The notes under the pieces were generated by a model. It ran no database searches. It was not told where the DNA came from and saw only the letters and a list, made by a program, of their open reading frames with translations. A stretch of DNA of 64,000 nt, taken from NCBI RefSeq assembly GCF_030296015.1, contig NZ_AP027368.1:4512839-4576838 (forward strand), written 5' to 3'. The stretch comes from Ferrimonas sp. YFM (GTDB lineage: Bacteria > Pseudomonadota > Gammaproteobacteria > Enterobacterales > Shewanellaceae). Below are positions 52,600-64,000 of the stretch, piece after piece; position 1 is the stretch's first letter; every line of letters begins with the position of its first letter. A program made the position numbers and the translations under genes.

Positions 52600-53790
52600 A
52601 TGCCGCAACTGTTCGCCTTGCTGGTCGGCATTCTGTTTGTGTTCAGTCCACAGGCAGAAGAGCACAGGGAAGTGGCGGCGCCGACACTGGAAGAAGCTCA
52701 GGAACTGATCGTCACGGTGCAGGACATCGTGGAGTATTACTACGTCGATCAGGTGGATCGCCGTGCCATGATCGAGGGCGCGCTCAAGGGGCTGTTTGAA
52801 TCCCTGGATCCGCACTCCACCTACCTGACCCCACAGACTCTGGAACTGCTCAGAGAAGCCAACGACGGCCATTACTACGGCTACGGCATCGAGGTGAGCA
52901 TCGACGAGGGAGTGGTGCAGGTGATCACCCCCCTGGCCCACAGCTCTGCCCACTACGCCGGCATCAAACCGGGGGACATTCTGGTGCGGGTGGACGACCT
53001 GCCCGCCACACCGGACACCATGGACAAGCTGATCCAGTACATCAAGACCGCCAGCCGCGAAGACCGCACCCTCACCCTCACCCTCAAGCGGGAGAAAGCG
53101 CCCATGCCGCTGACGGTGAGCCTGCAGCCCAGCAACATCACCATCGACAGCACCCAGTTCCGCTCCCTGCCCCACCAGGTGGGCTACCTGAAGATCAACA
53201 GTTTCAACCGCCAGACCACCGACGAGGTGGCCAGATTCAGCAGCCGCATCCGCCAGGAGGGGCTTACCCAGCTGATCCTGGATCTGCGCAACAACCCCGG
53301 CGGCATGTTTGACTCCGCCGTTCAGATCGCCGACATGTTCCTCGACGCCGGGCTGATCGTCTCCACCCATGGCCGCTTCCTGGACGCCAACAACGACTAC
53401 TACGCCTCAGACGCCGCCCCCCTCGGCCAGCTGGAAGTGGTGGTGCTGATCAACGAAGGCAGCGCCTCGGCGGCAGAGATTCTCGCCGGTGCCCTCAAGG
53501 ATCACCAGAAAGCCACCCTGTTTGGCCAAACCTCCTTCGGCAAGGGCACGGTGCAAAGCCTCATCCCTCTGCTGGGGCAGCAGGGCGCCATCAAGCTGAC
53601 CACCGCCCGTTACGCCACCCCCAACGGCACCTTCATCGACAAGAAGGGGATCGACCCGGACATTCAGGTGCTGCTGGAGAATAGCGTCGAGAAGCCTATA
53701 ATGGCTGAATCAGAAATGAACGGACAATGGCTACAGGACAGTCAGTTGGCAGCCGCCTATGAGTGGTTGTTGCAGCCTTCCCGGGAGTAA
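52600..53790 (+). CDS. S41 family C-terminal processing peptidase
   Basis: The 396-residue protein has an N-terminal signal segment (LFALLVGILFVFSPQA), a PDZ domain (GYGIEVSIDEGVVQVITPLAHSSAHYAGIKPGDILVRV) and the serine/lysine protease core (LRNNPGGMFDSAVQIADMF, EGSASAAEILAGALKD, FGKGTVQ). Periplasmic processing peptidase near EnvC, probably affecting cell wall hydrolases. It overlaps the YibQ-like gene by 28 bases. Confidence 0.92.
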   Translation: MPQLFALLVGILFVFSPQAEEHREVAAPTLEEAQELIVTVQDIVEYYYVDQVDRRAMIEGALKGLFESLDPHSTYLTPQTLELLREANDGHYYGYGIEVSIDEGVVQVITPLAHSSAHYAGIKPGDILVRVDDLPATPDTMDKLIQYIKTASREDRTLTLTLKREKAPMPLTVSLQPSNITIDSTQFRSLPHQVGYLKINSFNRQTTDEVARFSSRIRQEGLTQLILDLRNNPGGMFDSAVQIADMFLDAGLIVSTHGRFLDANNDYYASDAAPLGQLEVVVLINEGSASAAEILAGALKDHQKATLFGQTSFGKGTVQSLIPLLGQQGAIKLTTARYATPNGTFIDKKGIDPDIQVLLENSVEKPIMAESEMNGQWLQDSQLAAAYEWLLQPSRE

Positions 53791-54602
53791 TCATCAGGTA
53801 CGCTTTTCTGGCTTTGCTGCTGTGGGTCCACACCGCCACAGCGGCAGAGCTGACGCTCATTATCGACGATGTAGGTTACCGGCAGACCGATAAAGGTGTG
53901 CTGGCGCTACCTGCTGCCACCACACTGAGTGTGCTGCCCCATACCCCCTGGGGTCGGCAGCTGGCCATCGCCGGCTGGCGCCAGGGCAATGAGATCATGC
54001 TGCATCTGCCGATGCTGGCCGATGGCGGCAACGCCCTGGGGCCCAGCGCCCTGGTAGGCGGCATGACCCCCTGGGAAGTACAGGTCACCATCAAGCGCGC
54101 CCTGGCGGACATCCCCTTTGCCCGGGGCATCAACAACCACATGGGCAGCACCCTGACCCGCCAGCGCCCCATGATGGACGCCGTCATGGCGGAGGTGGCC
54201 CATAGAGATCTCTACTTCGTCGACAGCCTCACCACCCCGGACTCCGTCGCCTACGACGCCGCCGTGGCTCAGGGGATACCGGCCCTCAAGCGTCATGTGT
54301 TTCTGGACAACGAAACCGAAGAGGTGGATCTGCAGCAACAGTTTGACCAGGCGGTGACCATCGCCAGGCGATATGGCCGGGCGGTGCTCATTGGCCACCC
54401 CTACCCGGAAACCCTGACCTTCCTGGAGCAGGCATTGCCCACCCTGGACGGCCAGGGCGTCACCCTGGTACCGGCTTCGGCTCTGCTCAGCGACCAACAG
54501 CGGGCCCAGCTCAGGCCACTGAAGCCGCCCACCGCCTTTCTGCATAAGCTGCCCACGCCACAGCCCTCCCAGGCGAGCCTGGGCGGCGCCAGCCTCCACT
54601 AG
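53763..54602 (+). CDS. YibQ-like divergent polysaccharide deacetylase
   Basis: The 279-residue exported protein has a signal peptide (YAFLALLLWVHTATA) and the family start LTLIIDDVGYRQTDKGVLALPAATTLSVLP. Later blocks are EIMLHLPMLADGG, GINNHMGSTLT and FVDSLTTPDSVA. The start is GTG 53763 inside the peptidase gene; no ATG is available. End of the gpmI-envC-ctpA-yibQ run, as in other proteobacteria. Confidence 0.88.
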   Translation: MVVAAFPGVIIRYAFLALLLWVHTATAAELTLIIDDVGYRQTDKGVLALPAATTLSVLPHTPWGRQLAIAGWRQGNEIMLHLPMLADGGNALGPSALVGGMTPWEVQVTIKRALADIPFARGINNHMGSTLTRQRPMMDAVMAEVAHRDLYFVDSLTTPDSVAYDAAVAQGIPALKRHVFLDNETEEVDLQQQFDQAVTIARRYGRAVLIGHPYPETLTFLEQALPTLDGQGVTLVPASALLSDQQRAQLRPLKPPTAFLHKLPTPQPSQASLGGASLH

Positions 54603-56631: not shown

Positions 56632-56725
56632 CCCTGTCTCCGCTTCTGGTCCCGACAGCCCAGTGTACTGACTGCCTCAGAAGGCGCAAGGAGGAACGCT
56701 CCCTGCAATTGAGTCAATGGAGGAG

Positions 56726-57313
56726 TTAAGTTTGCCGCCAGAGCTGTCGCCTGGAAAAGCTCAACTTGTTTTTTTCTGACTCTGTCAGCAGATGTTCAAC
56801 ATTCCTGAGTAACTCTTCCACCTGCTTATAATCTTTCGCTTGCCAAGCTGGACCGAGTTGCCGGCGAATATGAGACAGCCGAGTCTCTATAGCAAGCTCA
56901 TGACTCTCAAGATCGCGCTGCTCTTTCAGGGCAAGAAAAGCTTCAGCATCCCCCTTGAGTAAATCGGGACCAATATCTAACAACAGTGATGCCATCTTCT
57001 CCAGGCACCGCACCATTGACTCCTCTGAAGCCGCAGCAAAAGAAGTTTGGAGATCAAGAGCTTCAACACCCTTTAACATCGCCACTTCTCTTAAGTCGAA
57101 TGTCTCTTCAGGCTCATAATCTGTTCGTCCCTGCTGGCCAATACACACTTCAAGGTCATATCCGTGGCCAAAGTCATAAGACACGATGACAATAACCTCA
57201 TCGCTTTCATATCGGGCAGTTCCATCTAGGCCATCAACTCGACTAAAACCAAAACTCTCTTCTAAATAAGCAAACTCTGAGACAGTGGCCCTTTTGAATC
57301 CTGATAAGCTCAT
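56726..57313 (-). CDS. uncharacterised 195-residue protein
   Basis: I do not recognise it. The N-terminal half is beta-rich (EVIVIVSYDFGHGYDLEVCIGQQG), the C-terminal half helical and charged (ALKEQRDLESHELAIETRLSHIRRQ). No signal peptide. AGGAGCGGGC precedes ATG 57313. The pattern is reminiscent of immunity or cytosolic adaptor proteins, but this is not a claim. It lies just inside the core side of the island boundary. Confidence 0.65.
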   Translation of the reverse strand: MSLSGFKRATVSEFAYLEESFGFSRVDGLDGTARYESDEVIVIVSYDFGHGYDLEVCIGQQGRTDYEPEETFDLREVAMLKGVEALDLQTSFAAASEESMVRCLEKMASLLLDIGPDLLKGDAEAFLALKEQRDLESHELAIETRLSHIRRQLGPAWQAKDYKQVEELLRNVEHLLTESEKNKLSFSRRQLWRQT

Positions 57314-57335
57314 GCCCGCTCCTTACAGCTAGAGG

Positions 57336-57611
57336 TTATCCCTTGAGCGCCGCTCCGGCTCTCAGAGTTTCATAGGTGTCCTGCTCGAGCAGGGTGAGGG
57401 TCGCCATCGCCTGCTCATCGGTGCCGCCGCAGAGGTCGGCGTCCGGCTTGAAGGCACCGCACACCACAGGCCGCTGGGGCTGGCCGAAAAGCTTGCACAG
57501 GTTGTTGTCATCCAGCTGAATGCAGCGCACGCCGGCGGGCTTGCCATGGGGCATGCCGGGAATGGGGGAGCTGATTGAGGGAGCGATGCAGCAGTGGTGG
57601 CACCCTGATTT
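57336..57611 (-). pseudogene. YkgJ-family cysteine cluster gene lacking its start
   Basis: The frame reads SGCHHCCIAPSISSPIPGMP then HGKPAGVRCIQLDDNNLCKLF and ends normally, so most of a YkgJ-type zinc/iron-chelating protein is present, including a CxxCC motif. There is no start codon before the first cysteines; a TAA lies at 57612-57614 in AT-rich sequence. A 72-residue product could start at ATG 57554 but would lack the first cysteine cluster. The break marks the border of the AT-rich island. Confidence 0.65.
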
Positions 57612-57793
57612 TTAGAACTTAGAAATGGCTATAAGCATATAATTTAGCTCAACTTTACATTTTTTCTAAACTTAAGCCCATTGGGCAATTTTTCCCCTCG
57701 CCAAAAACTAAGCCGTTACGCACGATTTCTAAAACTATGCTCCAACGGGGCGATTTACCTCCGCGGGAGCATGGTATGGGCAGGCTACCTCCT

Positions 57794-59494
57794 TCACTGT
57801 CCCCGAGTATAGTACCCCTCCAACCTCGGAGTTGTGCGTACATCACCAGCAGTAACGTTTGCGACTCCGTTCCTTTCAATGATCTTTTCTCTTGCGCCAC
57901 CGAGAGAAACGGCTATTCGTGGGTAGTCTTCTTCCAAATCTGGATACTCTTCCTGCAACCAGAGAGGGAAAGCAGGAGCCCGTGCTAGTTGGAGTTCTTT
58001 ACCGCGTACATAGACACTACCCTTAGCAAGCTCTTTGACCATAGGAAGTTCTGCCCCACCACCTGTAAGCGCTATACCAAGAGCTCCATTAGGTGCGCCA
58101 TTTGTAAAGCTAGAATCGATTCTAGACAAAATCCTATCTCTACACTCGGTCAAAGATCGTCCGAAGCTCTTTACCTGCTCCAATGCCAAAAACTCATCAA
58201 TGGTTACGGTTACAAGTTCATCTGTAAAGAGCCTTACAGAAACCTCTCCACTTAAAAACAAGCGCTCCTTGTGGTCTCTAAGGTCAAGTTCTAGGTTACC
58301 GAGAACATTCAACCAATGCTCATGTGTATGGTCGACTTCAGATTTGCTAAGAATAAAACCCTTCAGTAGGTTATCCAGATGATTTCCAGCTTCAGTTATA
58401 CCTTCATTTGAGTCCGCAACCTCAAGAGCAGTACTTACTTTTGTATTTTCGTCATATCGCATTCTAAACACACTGAAGTCACTAGTTCCTGCCCCGACAT
58501 CAATTACCATCACTAAGGAGTTCACACTTTTCGTCCAACTAATTAGTGAACCAGCGACACCCAAAGGTTCTGTGATATCTTCGGCAATGAATGGGTAATT
58601 CAGTCGCTTTTCTCTTATCGCATATACTATTTCAACAAATTTATTAATAGGTATGCCATCTTGCATCGAGTTGCTGAACGTATCTGCTAGAATCTGTGCT
58701 TCGCCTAACATGGAACCTAACAATTGAGCTGTATCTCGTGATTTTGAAAGCTCTAAACATGGCATTGCATACCTTCGAATAACATTCTTCGGCTCACCTA
58801 ACTCAGCCAAGCACTGATTAGCAGTCCATGTCAGATACATTAGATTAGCAAGGATCATATCCCCATACGTTACACTATAGGATGTCGGGTTGAACCTTTC
58901 ACTAACTATACTTGAAAACCCTTCCTCTGATAAATATCGCTTAATATTATCTAATCGCTGGCGCCCATCTTTTTCTAACCGCGAACGATCAACTGCTGAC
59001 TTTCCAAACCAAAGGTATCCTTCTTGGTCAATAAACACAGAAGAGATCAGCATTGTTTCACTAATTTCCTCTTGGTCACCAGGAATCCCTAGGGTTAAAA
59101 CCTCAATTTCCTCAAAATCGCTTCCACCACTAGTGTCACGAACCAAAGTTACCTTTGACATAGCAGTACCAAAGTCCAAGCATAGACGGTGGCCCTCTGA
59201 AGCTTCCGGTAAATCAAGGACACTCAGATCTATCTCTATGCTTGGAGAATCTTGATCTTCTACCTGGGTTTTAGGTGTGTCATCAATAGTTCTGTTTGAA
59301 CTATCCAATTCAAAAGTAGCTTGCTTCTCAACGGTTACACTTGGCTCTTCACTACTTAATACGTTTAAAGCCAGCCTCAAGGCACTCATTTCATCATCAG
59401 TTAATGTACCACGAAGTTCATAGCTATCTTCTTCTACTTTCCTAAACCTCTTTATAAGGCTCTTAAGTAGAACCTTTCCCTCAAAAACTTCCAT
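57794..59494 (-). CDS. actin/Hsp70-like ATPase of the hsdR-linked system
   Basis: ATG 59494 (GGAGG upstream; ATG 59497 also possible) gives 566 residues. About 100 N-terminal residues have no known domain. Then the actin/Hsp70 fold: phosphate-1 LCLDFGTAMSKVTL, phosphate-2 MVIDVGAGTSDFSVF and adenosine motif IALTGGGAELPMVKEL. There is no room for a canonical substrate-binding domain after it. It follows the GrpE-like gene after 25 bases, and both follow hsdR. It is probably a cytoplasmic ATPase that works with its neighbour. It is not DnaK itself, since length and motifs differ. Confidence 0.85.
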   Translation of the reverse strand: MEVFEGKVLLKSLIKRFRKVEEDSYELRGTLTDDEMSALRLALNVLSSEEPSVTVEKQATFELDSSNRTIDDTPKTQVEDQDSPSIEIDLSVLDLPEASEGHRLCLDFGTAMSKVTLVRDTSGGSDFEEIEVLTLGIPGDQEEISETMLISSVFIDQEGYLWFGKSAVDRSRLEKDGRQRLDNIKRYLSEEGFSSIVSERFNPTSYSVTYGDMILANLMYLTWTANQCLAELGEPKNVIRRYAMPCLELSKSRDTAQLLGSMLGEAQILADTFSNSMQDGIPINKFVEIVYAIREKRLNYPFIAEDITEPLGVAGSLISWTKSVNSLVMVIDVGAGTSDFSVFRMRYDENTKVSTALEVADSNEGITEAGNHLDNLLKGFILSKSEVDHTHEHWLNVLGNLELDLRDHKERLFLSGEVSVRLFTDELVTVTIDEFLALEQVKSFGRSLTECRDRILSRIDSSFTNGAPNGALGIALTGGGAELPMVKELAKGSVYVRGKELQLARAPAFPLWLQEEYPDLEEDYPRIAVSLGGAREKIIERNGVANVTAGDVRTTPRLEGYYTRGQ

Positions 59495-59519
59495 CATAAA
59501 ACCTCCATGTGACAAAGTA

Positions 59520-60995
59520 TCAATCTGCGTTCTTAACCCTGGGCTTCACAAGTATCTTGGTTTTTCCACCGAAGTCTTTCTGAATACCATCACGTAACAC
59601 TTTCACCTTACGAACACCATATTGGTGTCCTCCCAGCATTTCGTGTTGCAAAGGGTTATAATCTAATACTGCTCCTTTCAAGCCCATATGTTTGAGCTTT
59701 CGCATCTTTGCTAGATGCCTTGCTGTCTCAGAAATTTCCCCATAACTTAGGGCAGCTTTTTTTACATTCTCTGATAGTGCTGGCTCCATCACTTCCAGCA
59801 TTGGAACAACAGCCCTTTCAAGCTTTTCCATAACCGTTTTACTTTCTTCCACATTAATCAACAACGACCCTATTTGTTGATCATCTGAATTACTCACTTT
59901 GTGCTCGGCCACACGTTTAGGAGAGCTTACATCTCCAGCTCTTTCCCACCACTCTCGCACATCCGGATCAAGCTCATGTGCACTGGAGAAATGGGCTATA
60001 ATCGCAGCTCTAGCCTGCGCTTTCGAGTAGTAAGCAAAGCGGAGTGAATCCATTAATCCTTTATCTGTACTATTTTGTCTAGCCAAGACCAAAGCAGACT
60101 CTTTTAAAGCTGTTCTAACTTTTTCTAGGAACTGTGACCTCCGCATGATCTCAACCCATACATCATGCTTAAATGTTGTTCTCGCACGGTCAAGTACGCT
60201 ATATGTTTCTGCTATCAGAGCAAACGAGAACCGCAGCTCGATCACTCGCAAGAGAATAGATAGAGTATCATCGATGAGATCCACCAAGACAGAGACATCA
60301 ACATCTTTTCGGCTTGTCATCGTCACAGATGAGAACCATTCAGATAAGGCAACCCCAGGGCTATAGCCTACATCGCCTTCCCACTGCCGTATTACGTCCG
60401 AAGAGACACTACTCAAACGTCTGGCTCGTTTGTAGCGAGTATCATCACTGTCGATGGCTTTTAATGTTGGAAATACTTTGGAAGTACTCAGCAAAAAACC
60501 TGCTAAGGATCCAAACTTAGACAACGCGGTAGACAACAGCACACGTCTCGCCTTTTCCGCTGTATCGATATCCACCGCTTGATTAAGGCAGTACTCCGCT
60601 AACCACGGCTGGTTTAACTCAGCTAAGCAAAGTGATGCATAATACTTCTCATCGCCATCTTCAAGAGCCTCTATTGAGCCAGGTTGAGTTTCAGAAAACA
60701 AATCCGATAAACGAGAAAAAACAGCGCCTTCCCTGCCCCGAGCCACCGCTGACAGCCTTCCTAAAACCGCAGCACAGATCAAGGTTCTATTTTGAGAGTC
60801 CGAGCGTACTAAACCCTTACTGAGGACGACATCACAAATATGATCCAGATTCTGTCCTTTTATAAGCGCTTGAATCTTCTGTTTCGCCATAACTCTAGTG
60901 AGAAGCTCGTTGACTCCCCGCAAGTCCTGACAATCCTCAATAAAATCGAGTTGAGCTTCTACACCATCATCGAGAACTTGCTCTAAGTGCCCCAT
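59520..60995 (-). CDS. uncharacterised helical protein with a GrpE-like C terminus
   Basis: 491 residues from ATG 60995 (GGGGGAGAG upstream; ATG 61007 is an alternative). The body is mostly alpha-helical. The last 60 residues, MGLKGAVLDYNPLQHEMLGG then HQYGVRKVKVLRDGIQKDFG and a final beta segment, follow the pattern of the GrpE beta domain (DP..H..., V..V...G, final strand), preceded by a helical segment as in GrpE. That fits a nucleotide-exchange factor for the adjacent Hsp70-like ATPase. This assignment rests on pattern reading only. It lies 52 bases after hsdR in the same direction. Confidence 0.6.
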   Translation of the reverse strand: MGHLEQVLDDGVEAQLDFIEDCQDLRGVNELLTRVMAKQKIQALIKGQNLDHICDVVLSKGLVRSDSQNRTLICAAVLGRLSAVARGREGAVFSRLSDLFSETQPGSIEALEDGDEKYYASLCLAELNQPWLAEYCLNQAVDIDTAEKARRVLLSTALSKFGSLAGFLLSTSKVFPTLKAIDSDDTRYKRARRLSSVSSDVIRQWEGDVGYSPGVALSEWFSSVTMTSRKDVDVSVLVDLIDDTLSILLRVIELRFSFALIAETYSVLDRARTTFKHDVWVEIMRRSQFLEKVRTALKESALVLARQNSTDKGLMDSLRFAYYSKAQARAAIIAHFSSAHELDPDVREWWERAGDVSSPKRVAEHKVSNSDDQQIGSLLINVEESKTVMEKLERAVVPMLEVMEPALSENVKKAALSYGEISETARHLAKMRKLKHMGLKGAVLDYNPLQHEMLGGHQYGVRKVKVLRDGIQKDFGGKTKILVKPRVKNAD

Positions 60996-61047
60996 TCTCT
61001 CCCCCATCTACATTTAAAAATAATTACTATCTACAAGGGCATTTGTA

Positions 61048-64000
61048 CTACAACTTAACCATCCGCTGCATGCTCTGGCTCAAAGAAGCTTTGAAAGCCG
61101 CATCTTTGGCAAATCGTTTGTAGAATTCCATGTCGACCAAGCGATGTTTGAGCATCACCTCCGTCAACATCTTCTCCCAAGCTAATTGGCGGTTATGAGG
61201 GTCAGGGTTATTCTGGTACTTAGCCTCGAAGTCTGGATGGTTCTTCATGCTTTCAGCGATCTTTATGAACTTGATCCGATTCTCTTCAGGTGTAGCGTCC
61301 CACCCCTGAAACCAGTGCTCGTTGAAAGCTTGGACAATCTCATCAAGAGGATTGGTTTCCTTTTCACCGCCGTGAGCTCCTCGTGGATTGGGATTTTGCG
61401 GATCTAGCTCAGTTTCTTCGGCATCCAAACCTATCTTATGATTCAGCTTCACCCGCTCCAGACCATAGGAACTTAGATCAACCGACTCCAACAACTCATC
61501 CAATACATCCGCTTCAGGATCTTCCAACTTCAGCTTTGGAATCAAAAACTTGAGGAACCAAAACAACTTCTCCCATAACACCACTTCATAAGGCATAATA
61601 GAGGCCATTTGGCCGTAGATCTTCACGAACTGCTTGGCCTTAATCTTAAAGTCCGCTTTATCCTCATTTTCCAGCTCCAACTCATTGTTGAAGCGGGCAG
61701 CAGCAGTATCGATAAGCGGGCTCAACTCTTGAGCATCCACGCCATCAATAAAGCGGGTAGTGAACTGGTCTACTTCATGCCACTCGTAGACACCCACATC
61801 ATCCATGGCGTCCTTCAACTCGTGCAGCACGTTCACATCAGTTGCTTCGGACAAGGTGGTCGCGGTGTAAAAGGGGTCAAACGAGCTCTTGATATCCTCA
61901 ACGGTATTGAAGAAATCCAGGACAAACAAGTCTTCTGTCTTTTTGCCCAGTTTCGGGGCAGAACGGTTCAGCCGCGACAGGGTCTGCACACACAGCACCC
62001 CAGGGAGTTTCTTGTCCACATACATTGAGCAAAGCTTGGGCTGATCAAAGCCGGTCAAATACTTATTCGCTACTACCAACAGGCGATATTCATCGGAATC
62101 GAACTTGTCTTTGGTCTCGGTATCAGCAAAACCATTCAGGCTCGCTTCTGTATGCTCAATCCCATCGACCTTTTTGGTTTCTGAGAATGCCACCGCTACT
62201 TTGAATGGGTTGCCCATCTGCTCCAACTGGCGTGTAATAGCTTTGTAGTAACGGATAGCTGTCTCAATATTCTGCGTGACCACCATACCTTTGCCTTTGC
62301 CCTTAAGCTTCTTGGCATTCACCACATGGGGGATAAAATGGTCGAGCATTATCTCCGCTTTGATATCGATGGTCTGCTGACTCCGCTCCACATAGGCTCG
62401 CAGCTTTTTCTGGGCTTTCCTGCTATCAAACTCTGGGTTTTCAGCGATCGACTTCTCAATCTCGTAGTAGCTCTTGTAGGTGGTGTAGTTGGCCAATACA
62501 TCAAGGATGAACCCCTCCTCAATGGCCTGCTTCATTGAGTACAGGTGGAACGACTTAAAGCTTCCGTCATCCTGCCGCTCACCAAACTTCTCCAAAGTGG
62601 AGTTTTTAGGCGTTGCAGTGAAGGCTAAGTAGGAGGCATTACCTCGCATCTTTCGGGCACGCATTGCCTGCAGGATCTTATCCTGAGCATCCTCGTACTC
62701 CTCATCAGAGCCCATCGCCTTGTTCATGTTGTCATGGGCAGAGCCCGATTGAGAGCTGTGCGCCTCATCAATGATCACGGCAAAGCGCTTATTGCTAAGA
62801 TCAGATATCCCATCGATGATGTAGGGAAACTTCTGAATGGTGGTAATGATGATCTTCTTACCGATCTCAAGCGCCGATTTGAGTTCTGCCGAGCGATTAG
62901 CGTGCGCGACAATGTTCTTAACCTCAGAGAACTCTTTGATGGTGTCCCGCAGTTGCTTGTCCAGCAAACGACGGTCAGTCACCACGATCACCGAATCAAA
63001 TAACGGCTGTTCAATGCCACAGCTCCCCGGCACCTCATTACTAACAGGATATGCCTCAATAAGCTGAAATGCAGCCCAAGTAATAGAGTTGGACTTACCC
63101 GAGCCAGCCGAGTGCTGAATAAGGTAGGTCTGCCCCACCCCTCGGTTGCATGCATCATCAATCAGCTTACGCACCACATCCATCTGGTGATAACGGGGAA
63201 AAAACAATGTGCGCTTATTCAGCGGCGTTTTGCTGGTGCCATCCAATCGGACAAAGTGCTGAATGATATTGGCCAGGCTCTCCTTGGTGAACACCTCTTC
63301 CCACAGGTAAGCCGTCTTATGGCCGTGAGGATTAGGCGGATTCCCCTTACCATGGTCGTAGCCCTTATTGAACGGCAAGAAGAAGGTTTTTTTTCCAGCC
63401 AGCTTGGTCGTCATATAGACCTCATCGGTATCCACCGCCATATGCACCAGACATCGACCAAAACTCAATAGCGGCTGGGTAGAATCACGATCTTCCTTGT
63501 ACTGCTTCTGCCCATGGTAACGGGCATTCTGACCGGTCCAAGCGTTCTTTAACTCCAGTGTGACCACAGGGATACCGTTGATAAACAGCACCATGTCGAT
63601 CTCCTGCAGCGGCCTTTGCTTGTTGTAGCGAACCTGCCGAGTACAGCTGAAGATATTGGCGTCGAAGTTTTGCTTAACCCGCTCACTGCTGCTGGCCAGC
63701 GGTGCCGGGCACATCAAGATCAGGTGGGCGTCATCAACGCTCAGGCCCTTTTTCAGCAAGTGCAAGATCCCATGCTTGCTGATCAACCGGTCAAACCGTT
63801 CCAGCACCTTGCGCTGCCAATCATTGGGGCTGTTGCGCTTAAGCTTCTCCAGCTCCTGTTCCTGTGTCAGCTCTAGGAATTGCCAGAAGTACTTGGTATC
63901 CAGCGCATACTGCATATCAAAGTCATCCGGCACTCCCAACTGGAATCGGCGATTACCATAGTTCGGAACGGCCCCACCCAGTTTAAGAGTCTCAACACAG
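61048..64000 (-). CDS. hsdR: type I restriction endonuclease subunit R (5' end outside window)
   Basis: The frame is open to the window edge, so the N terminus is missing. Visible are the PD-(D/E)XK nuclease (EIDMVLFINGIPVVTLELKN), Walker A AGSGKSNSITW, the DEAH box IIDEAHSSQSG, TATPKNSTL and RLNRSAPKLGKK of the translocase, and a helical C-terminal region. HsdR cuts DNA after ATP-driven translocation when the HsdM/HsdS complex meets unmodified sites. hsdM and hsdS are not in the window and should lie to the right. The next two genes are not usual type I partners. Confidence 0.93.
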   Translation of the reverse strand, partial: CVETLKLGGAVPNYGNRRFQLGVPDDFDMQYALDTKYFWQFLELTQEQELEKLKRNSPNDWQRKVLERFDRLISKHGILHLLKKGLSVDDAHLILMCPAPLASSSERVKQNFDANIFSCTRQVRYNKQRPLQEIDMVLFINGIPVVTLELKNAWTGQNARYHGQKQYKEDRDSTQPLLSFGRCLVHMAVDTDEVYMTTKLAGKKTFFLPFNKGYDHGKGNPPNPHGHKTAYLWEEVFTKESLANIIQHFVRLDGTSKTPLNKRTLFFPRYHQMDVVRKLIDDACNRGVGQTYLIQHSAGSGKSNSITWAAFQLIEAYPVSNEVPGSCGIEQPLFDSVIVVTDRRLLDKQLRDTIKEFSEVKNIVAHANRSAELKSALEIGKKIIITTIQKFPYIIDGISDLSNKRFAVIIDEAHSSQSGSAHDNMNKAMGSDEEYEDAQDKILQAMRARKMRGNASYLAFTATPKNSTLEKFGERQDDGSFKSFHLYSMKQAIEEGFILDVLANYTTYKSYYEIEKSIAENPEFDSRKAQKKLRAYVERSQQTIDIKAEIMLDHFIPHVVNAKKLKGKGKGMVVTQNIETAIRYYKAITRQLEQMGNPFKVAVAFSETKKVDGIEHTEASLNGFADTETKDKFDSDEYRLLVVANKYLTGFDQPKLCSMYVDKKLPGVLCVQTLSRLNRSAPKLGKKTEDLFVLDFFNTVEDIKSSFDPFYTATTLSEATDVNVLHELKDAMDDVGVYEWHEVDQFTTRFIDGVDAQELSPLIDTAAARFNNELELENEDKADFKIKAKQFVKIYGQMASIMPYEVVLWEKLFWFLKFLIPKLKLEDPEADVLDELLESVDLSSYGLERVKLNHKIGLDAEETELDPQNPNPRGAHGGEKETNPLDEIVQAFNEHWFQGWDATPEENRIKFIKIAESMKNHPDFEAKYQNNPDPHNRQLAWEKMLTEVMLKHRLVDMEFYKRFAKDAAFKASLSQSMQRMVKL

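What the first reader, a model, noticed from the sequence alone, without database searches (positions are those of the whole stretch)
57794..64000. hsdR followed by a GrpE-like and an Hsp70-like gene: possible chaperone-coupled restriction system
Seen: hsdR, a 491-residue helical protein and a 566-residue actin/Hsp70-type ATPase lie on one strand with gaps of 52 and 25 bases in an AT-rich island. Seen: the middle protein ends in a stretch matching the GrpE beta-domain pattern, and the ATPase has both phosphate motifs and the adenosine motif but no substrate-binding domain. Known: Hsp70 ATPases work with GrpE-type exchange factors; type I R subunits normally stand with M and S only. Inference: the pair could be a private nucleotide-switch that gates or repairs the restriction complex, or a separate defence module added to it.
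Basis: partly seen in the sequence, partly recalled or inferred. Interest (0 to 1): 0.85.

Follow-up and report, generated by a model that had tools for sequence, protein, structure and literature searches.

The report
Hsp70-type ATPase pair beside restriction genes
Two neighbouring bacterial genes, one a stripped-down Hsp70-type ATPase and one a helical partner protein, form a rare, already catalogued but untested virus-defence candidate that travels as its own module and here sits at the end of a DNA-restriction operon.

Summary
The two downstream of hsdR match PADLOC's candidate defence system PDC-M61 end to end (A E 2.8e-201, B E 2.9e-234). B is an Hsp70-type nucleotide-binding domain with catalytic residues kept and no substrate-binding domain. 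A is predicted helical and of no recognised family. The GrpE reading did not survive tests: no Pfam match, GrpE profiles score A at background level, and the NPxxHE motif is missing in 2 of 5 sequences. Four further A-B pairs were found: after hsdS in two related genomes with a very different HsdR, alone between BREX and PDC-M51 genes, and at a prophage-like end. So the pair is an independent module, not a part of one HsdR. Here it lies in a 21.9-kb island inserted in a ykgJ-family gene near rpoH and absent from a close relative. Most likely it is a nucleotide-gated two-protein defence switch; antiphage activity and mechanism are untested. New member of a known, uncharacterised kind.

The parts
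57794..59494 (-). M61B: Hsp70-type NBD-only ATPase (566 aa from ATG 59494; open frame to TTG 59515, and residue numbers here count from that TTG, 573 aa). Residues 8-54 small N-terminal domain, about 55-100 variable linker, 105-552 actin/Hsp70-type ATPase
   Evidence: PADLOC PDC-M61B PDLC04731 E 2.9e-234; hhalign to DnaK/HscA profile 96.1%, E 3.1e-9, residues 105-495; all 50 listed Foldseek rows are Hsp70-family entries, on a low-confidence model
59520..60995 (-). M61A: predicted all-helical partner protein with a conserved C-terminal segment (491 aa from ATG 60995; open frame to ATG 61007, and residue numbers here count from that ATG, 495 aa)
   Evidence: PADLOC PDC-M61A PDLC04730 E 2.8e-201 and three further M61A models; no Pfam match over cut-off and no NCBIfam match at E<=1; AF2 helical, pLDDT 48.6
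61048..64000 (-). hsdR, type I restriction subunit; starts 86 bp beyond the window edge (1012 aa from a TTG)
   Evidence: Pfam HSDR_N, SWI2_SNF2, ResIII, T1R_D3-like; PADLOC REase_I E 7.6e-40; full ORF in L003
57595..64000 (.). Left part of a 21,851-bp genomic island (G000:C1:4570433-4592283) carrying, beyond the window, DUF4268/PDC-S11, hsdS, hsdM, an N6-methylase-like gene, a helicase and three large genes of which one is an integrase
   Evidence: Flanks contiguous in relative G009 (L091 1403|1404); gene content
56696..57331 (.). Separate small insertion (about 636 bp) with a 195-aa ORF of unknown family (56726-57313, minus), absent from G009; not part of the pair
   Evidence: blastn of flanks against L091

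Best explanation
An autonomous two-gene defence candidate (PADLOC PDC-M61) placed at the 3' end of a type I restriction operon. B is an Hsp70-type nucleotide-binding domain without a substrate-binding domain. It probably binds and hydrolyses ATP and changes shape or assembly state with the nucleotide. A is probably a helical-repeat protein that both recognises an infection-linked protein and sets B's nucleotide state. Neither protein has a recognised nuclease, protease or other effector domain, so the likeliest action is ATP-gated capture of, or assembly around, a phage or host-takeover factor, blocking phage growth; any effector step is unknown. Shown: conserved pair, ATPase residues, no SBD, mobility, occurrence with and without hsd genes. 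Inferred: A-B binding, ATPase activity, antiphage action, the target.
For: Both proteins match PDC-M61 models over nearly their whole length. In 5 of 5 loci A and B are adjacent, same strand, A first, from an 11-bp overlap to a 25-bp gap. The prophage-borne pair, 19%/31% identical to the window's A/B, still matches both models (A E 1.3e-20, B E 4.1e-90). Context: type I hsd operons in 3 of 5 (two of these from related genomes), between BREX (PglX, BrxC, BrxB, BrxA) and PDC-M51A/B in 1, end of a phage-like stretch in 1. DnaK's D8, T11, K70, E171, D194, T199 and D201 correspond to D114, T117, K192, E316, D339, T344 and D346, invariant in 5 of 5 (alignment, whose DnaK counts one less than E. coli from K70 on; E. 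coli numbers recalled). B against the DnaK/HscA profile 96.1%, E 3.1e-9; all 50 listed Foldseek rows Hsp70 family.
Against: No antiphage test of this family was found: the term PDC-M61 gives 0 held papers, and a 2026 paper says most PDCs lack experimental validation (passages). Only five loci, two closely related. Both AlphaFold2 models are poor (pLDDT 48.6 and 46.3), so the helical-repeat reading of A is weak (best Foldseek E 0.008, none <=0.001). On single sequences MreB (79%) scores between HscA (88%) and DnaK (58%) for B, and a profile search of PDB sequences puts FtsA first at E 0.036 and lists no Hsp70, so 'Hsp70' rather than 'actin-like ATPase' is not fully settled. A-B interaction was not tested.
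Confidence: 0.58

Rival explanations
1. Chaperone-coupled restriction: A and B act on HsdR or the R-M-S complex, gating, assembling or recycling it.
For: In 3 of 5 loci the pair follows the last hsd gene of a type I operon: 3 bp after hsdS in HTCC2148 and G1308 (GTG starts) and 52 bp after hsdR in the window. No terminator-like site was found at 57300-61300 (a simple scan).
Against: The window's HsdR and HTCC2148's share Pfam domains but no significant BLASTP similarity (E 0.086), and gene order differs (hsdS-DUF4268-hsdR-A-B against hsdR-hsdM-hsdS-A-B). In G1083 no type I subunit was found in the 19 neighbouring ORFs given to PADLOC, of 24 ORFs of 150 aa or more listed; in the phage-like contig none in 10 neighbouring ORFs, the rest of the 44 listed being judged by eye.
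Confidence: 0.12
2. A is a true GrpE-type exchange factor for B: an N-terminal helical domain fused to a GrpE beta-domain.
For: YNPLQHE lies in the most conserved part of A. The motif class occurs once in 157,074 residues of 1123 background frames (0.003 per 491 aa), and hhalign's best local match of whole A puts it in the GrpE motif's register. GrpE beside HSP70 is described in GAP1-N2 conflict systems (PMC7159879, passages).
Against: hhalign 0.6% for whole A; 0.3% for its C-terminal part, aligned elsewhere. With A's own frames and duplicates taken out, a GrpE HMM ranks the window's A 8th of 1128 sequences at E 6.1 (the stretch matched is 389-417, not the beta-domain) and the other four 22nd to 215th; a C-terminal-only HMM ranks two A proteins 32nd and 252nd and does not report three. 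No Pfam GrpE match (at E<=1; at E<=0.5), although that model finds GrpE in 21 of 21 genomes and 12 of 14 controls. Motif lost in G1308 (YKPLKYE) and the phage-like contig (YSPNVYD). No GrpE among the 50 listed Foldseek rows of a poor model.
Confidence: 0.1
3. A mobile-element helper: a chaperone-like pair that serves the phage or island carrying it (stability, assembly or counter-defence), not defence of the cell.
For: One pair lies at the end of a phage-like stretch; the window's pair is on an island with an integrase gene.
Against: Four of five pairs adjoin known or candidate defence genes; defence genes often ride on prophages and islands (general knowledge).
Confidence: 0.12

Closest known systems
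PDC-M61 (PADLOC-DB 2.0.0 candidate system; models seen here PDLC04727-04731)
   Same: Both proteins match over nearly full length; two adjacent genes beside immune genes
   Different: Nothing tested contradicts membership. The library entries carry no description or mechanism; the phage-borne and free-standing copies and the Hsp70 residue map were worked out here
CoCoNuT type III CnuD/CnuCD (Hsp70-like NBD/SBD with HEAT-like repeats; PMC11090510, passages read)
   Same: Hsp70-like ATPase coupled to helical repeats in a defence setting
   Different: CnuD has an SBD, degenerate Walker A-like motifs and a McrBC-type GTPase system; B has no SBD, keeps its catalytic residues and no GTPase partner was recognised beside the pair
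GAP1-N2 GTPase conflict systems with HSP70 + GrpE, some with an HSP70 domain lacking its peptide-binding domain (PMC7159879, passages read)
   Same: NBD-only Hsp70 in a predicted conflict system
   Different: No GAP1-N2 GTPase, DnaJ or full-length Hsp70 was recognised beside this pair; A is not recognisable as GrpE
YegD (E. coli HSP70 family protein, 450 aa)
   Same: Hsp70-type domain too short for an SBD; hhalign 72% to M61B, but over only 18 columns around phosphate-2
   Different: No M61A-like partner among the annotated neighbours; B has an added N-terminal domain and linker

Membership tests
PDC-M61 | Component A matches M61A models | tested here: met
   4 models, best E 2.8e-201
PDC-M61 | Component B matches M61B model | tested here: met
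   E 2.9e-234 over model positions 1-587 of 588
PDC-M61 | A and B adjacent | tested here: met
   5 of 5 loci
PDC-M61 | Association with known immune systems | tested here: met
   4 of 5 loci beside hsd or BREX genes (two of them related); 1 of 5 phage-borne without them
PDC-M61 | Protects against phage | not testable with these tools
   Needs phage challenge
Hsp70 (DnaK) family | Hsp70-type NBD fold | tested here: met
   hhalign 96.1% to DnaK/HscA profile; 50 of 50 listed Foldseek rows Hsp70 family, but model pLDDT only 46.3, and single-sequence and PDB-sequence tests do not separate it cleanly from MreB/FtsA
Hsp70 (DnaK) family | Pfam HSP70 PF00012 over cut-off | tested here: not met
   Not reported at E<=1; PF00012 in the own genome gives 3 matches (DnaK-, HscA- and MreB-like ORFs) and not B
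Hsp70 (DnaK) family | Catalytic residues K70, E171, D194, T199 | tested here: met
   K192, E316, D339, T344, invariant in 5 of 5 (E. coli numbering recalled)
Hsp70 (DnaK) family | Substrate-binding domain | tested here: not met
   Only 78 residues follow the last aligned NBD residue (495 of 573)
GrpE | Pfam/HMM GrpE match | tested here: not met
   the family model works in controls
GrpE | Beta-domain fold at the C terminus | tested here: inconclusive
   AF2 pLDDT about 30-40 there, two short strands at 476-479 and 482-485
HsdR-coupled system | Conserved hsdR-A-B order with related HsdR | tested here: not met
   1 of 5 loci has hsdR directly before A; HTCC2148 HsdR shows no significant BLASTP similarity to the window's (E 0.086), only shared Pfam domains

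The most novel reading that the evidence does not exclude
PDC-M61 is a chaperone-derived immune machine: an Hsp70 NBD without a substrate-binding domain that uses a separate helical-repeat protein as its recognition arm, trapping a viral protein in an ATP-dependent way without cutting nucleic acid. It would be a defence principle distinct from the restriction operon that carries it.
Probability: 0.2. Interest if true: 0.75.

Novelty: new member of a known kind. Interest (0 to 1): 0.42.

Why it matters
It shows that the striking hsdR-X-Hsp70 order is not a private partnership but a candidate module that moves between operons, islands and a phage-like element. The free-standing copies make a clean test possible: A+B alone, without restriction genes. 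If active, it would show how an Hsp70-type ATPase without a substrate-binding domain can serve immunity.

Tried and rejected
GrpE identity of A: tested by Pfam, hhalign and hmmsearch against background frames; not supported. The first background still held A's own frames, which inflated the motif count to 5; one search took out 8 such frames and duplicates and left 1 hit. Structure: two AlphaFold2 jobs on three-sequence alignments gave poor models. Foldseek of A gave mostly weak HEAT/ARM/TPR-type or designed helical-repeat rows in PDB, and nothing at E<=0.001 in PDB or the viral library. PDB sequence searches gave nothing at E<=0.03.

Survey: M61A in 1 of 398 genomes (phylum), 2 of 394 (order), 1 of 227 (genus of G1083), 2 of 195 (relatives of G1105) and 2 of 293 (order of G1105); each count includes a genome already known to carry it, and the samples overlap. 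M61B model: 61 of 369 genomes had E<=0.001, but only the own genome scored above 34 bits; the others were taken as Hsp70/actin cross-matches and dropped. (B as protein): 2 of 60 by its tally, the own genome and a 19.8-bit partial match in G025, dropped. Plasmid and phage collections (A and B, and the phage-borne B, as proteins) and E. coli (DNA only): no match. Genome contigs: first scan 0 relatives in 36 stretches, second 1 in 73. Viral contigs: 7 scans; 4 found no relative and 3 found the same one contig.

Literature: PDC-M61 0 papers; six further searches gave precedents only. One BREX paper was checked for Hsp70, GrpE and DnaK and has none. The guilt-by-embedding preprint by Payne and colleagues was not found in these searches; its title and authors are recalled, and I saw it only as cited in PMC12988326.

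Full report
What is there. The three minus-strand genes are real and open as far as the window and its genome show. hsdR ends at 61048. A runs 60995-59520 (491 aa), with a purine-rich GGGGGAGAG just before its ATG. B runs 59494-57794 (566 aa), with GGAGG before its tandem ATGs. The gaps are 52 and 25 bases. GC falls to 0.42-0.50 from about 0.60. hsdR carries HSDR_N, SWI2/SNF2 and type I R domains.

The wider operon. The window cuts hsdR; 1012 aa are seen in L003. In order of transcription the locus is: a 587-aa protein with N6_Mtase and Methylase_S stretches, hsdM, hsdS, a DUF4268 protein that matches another PADLOC candidate (PDC-S11, E 6.1e-179), hsdR, A, B. On the far side are a helicase gene, a small gene with a weak DUF6262 match below cut-off, and three large genes, of which one matches Phage_integrase and two have no Pfam match at E<=0.01; calling them a recombinase trio is from recall of such elements.

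The island. In relative G009 (rpoH 99% identical) the araC-type gene lies next to rpoH. The window's flanks are contiguous there at L091 1403|1404, which defines an insertion of 21,851 bp (window 57595 to L004 8283) inside a small gene of the ykgJ kind. The name rests on Pfam CxxCxxCC in the island's own similar gene and on recall. Of 13 other genomes of the genus, 12 have the usual left-flank genes (araC in 1, the 54646-55518 gene in 1, the 53763-54602 and 52600-53790 genes in 10) within 1.5 kb of rpoH; G001 showed none of them.

Family. Both proteins match PADLOC's candidate PDC-M61, with nothing over cut-off in Pfam or NCBIfam. A 2026 paper describes PDCs as putative candidates found by guilt-by-embedding and mostly without validation (PMC12988326, passages). 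No held paper names PDC-M61.

Relatives. Four further pairs were found. G1083: free-standing, about 8 kb from BREX genes (PglX, BrxC, BrxB, BrxA and a WYL gene) on one side and 1.3 kb from a PDC-M51B/A pair on the other. HTCC2148 and G1308: sigma54 activator, hsdR, hsdM, hsdS, A, B, then an AAA ATPase and a gene of about 300 aa (the AAA domain was tested in HTCC2148 only). L048: a contig end where an endolysin-like gene and other phage-like genes (3 of 8 proteins matched PHROGs, two of unknown function) precede A and B, and FAD-oxidoreductase and dihydrodipicolinate-synthase family genes follow. That this is a prophage end is inference. HTCC2148 and G1308 are related (HsdR 93% identical), and their kind of HsdR shares Pfam domains with the window's but no significant BLASTP similarity (E 0.086). 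A and B are adjacent and in the same order in 5 of 5 loci.

B. Against a profile of 12 DnaK/HscA sequences B aligns over residues 105-495 with 96.1% probability (E 3.1e-9); an MreB profile gives 17%. With single sequences the order is HscA 88, MreB 79, YegD 72, two further Hsp70-domain ORFs about 70, DnaK 58 and FtsA 24%, so the margin over actin-like relatives depends on the profile. Twenty shuffles each of DnaK, YegD and FtsA reach scores of at most 26.5, against 43, 46 and 35 for the real three. A profile search of PDB sequences gave FtsA first (E 0.036) and no Hsp70 at E<=10. Foldseek of a poor model lists Hsp70-family entries in all 50 rows shown, of 166 at E<=0.001. The catalytic residues are kept and invariant in 5 of 5; DnaK T12 is replaced by A118. 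No SBD can fit. The N-terminal 50 residues are a predicted alpha-beta-beta-alpha unit at pLDDT about 65-70.

A. It is predicted helical, with conservation highest at the C terminus: 61% of positions 463-495 are invariant in the four closer sequences, against 18-52% in the other blocks. The GrpE idea rests on YNPLQHE. The C-terminal model is too poor to decide the fold.

Mechanism. Because the pair occurs with very different HsdR proteins, after hsdS, beside BREX and in a phage-like contig, it is best read as a self-contained module. The commitment made here is an ATP-gated switch in which A supplies recognition and B the nucleotide cycle. Activity and target are inferred. Precedents for Hsp70-type ATPases with helical repeats or with GrpE in conflict systems come from passages of PMC11090510 and PMC7159879. 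PMC12169576 (passages) reports that the host chaperone DnaJ mediates phage sensing by a bacterial NLR-like protein.

Limits. Five loci, two of them related; poor structural models; sampled rather than complete surveys, whose positives include the starting genomes.

Noticed in passing
L003:12921-14057 (beyond the window's right edge): A DUF4268 protein between hsdS and hsdR matches a second PADLOC candidate, PDC-S11 (E 6.1e-179): two candidate defences in one type I operon.
   Followed up: partly
G000:C1:4570433-4592283; L004:2346-2693: The island sits inside a ykgJ-type gene at its GCGACC motif and carries its own full-length similar gene (Pfam CxxCxxCC) beside the integrase genes, as if it replaces the gene it interrupts.
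   Followed up: partly
L003:17851-19614: 587-aa protein upstream of hsdM with partial N6_Mtase and Methylase_S matches; a fused or decayed second methylase/specificity protein.
   Followed up: no
L040:2141-3670 and L044:5996-7693: A sigma54 activator (in HTCC2148 with weak, below-cut-off RtcR and CARF matches in its N-terminal part) precedes hsdR-hsdM-hsdS-A-B on the same strand in both genomes; a possible stress trigger for the operon.
   Followed up: partly
L040:13226-16116; L045:3249-6100: An AAA ATPase (AAA_15 in HTCC2148) and a gene of about 300 aa without Pfam match follow B in both related genomes.
   Followed up: partly
L039:4108-5954: A PDC-M51B/A pair (another PADLOC candidate: kinase-like and radical-SAM-like by eye) lies 1.3 kb from the G1083 A-B pair.
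   Followed up: no
window:56726-57313: 195-aa ORF in a separate insertion of about 636 bp, absent from G009; no family found over cut-off.
   Followed up: partly
window:38000-45000: Stretch of GC 0.62-0.65 with strong AT skew (about -0.2), unlike the rest of the window.
   Followed up: no
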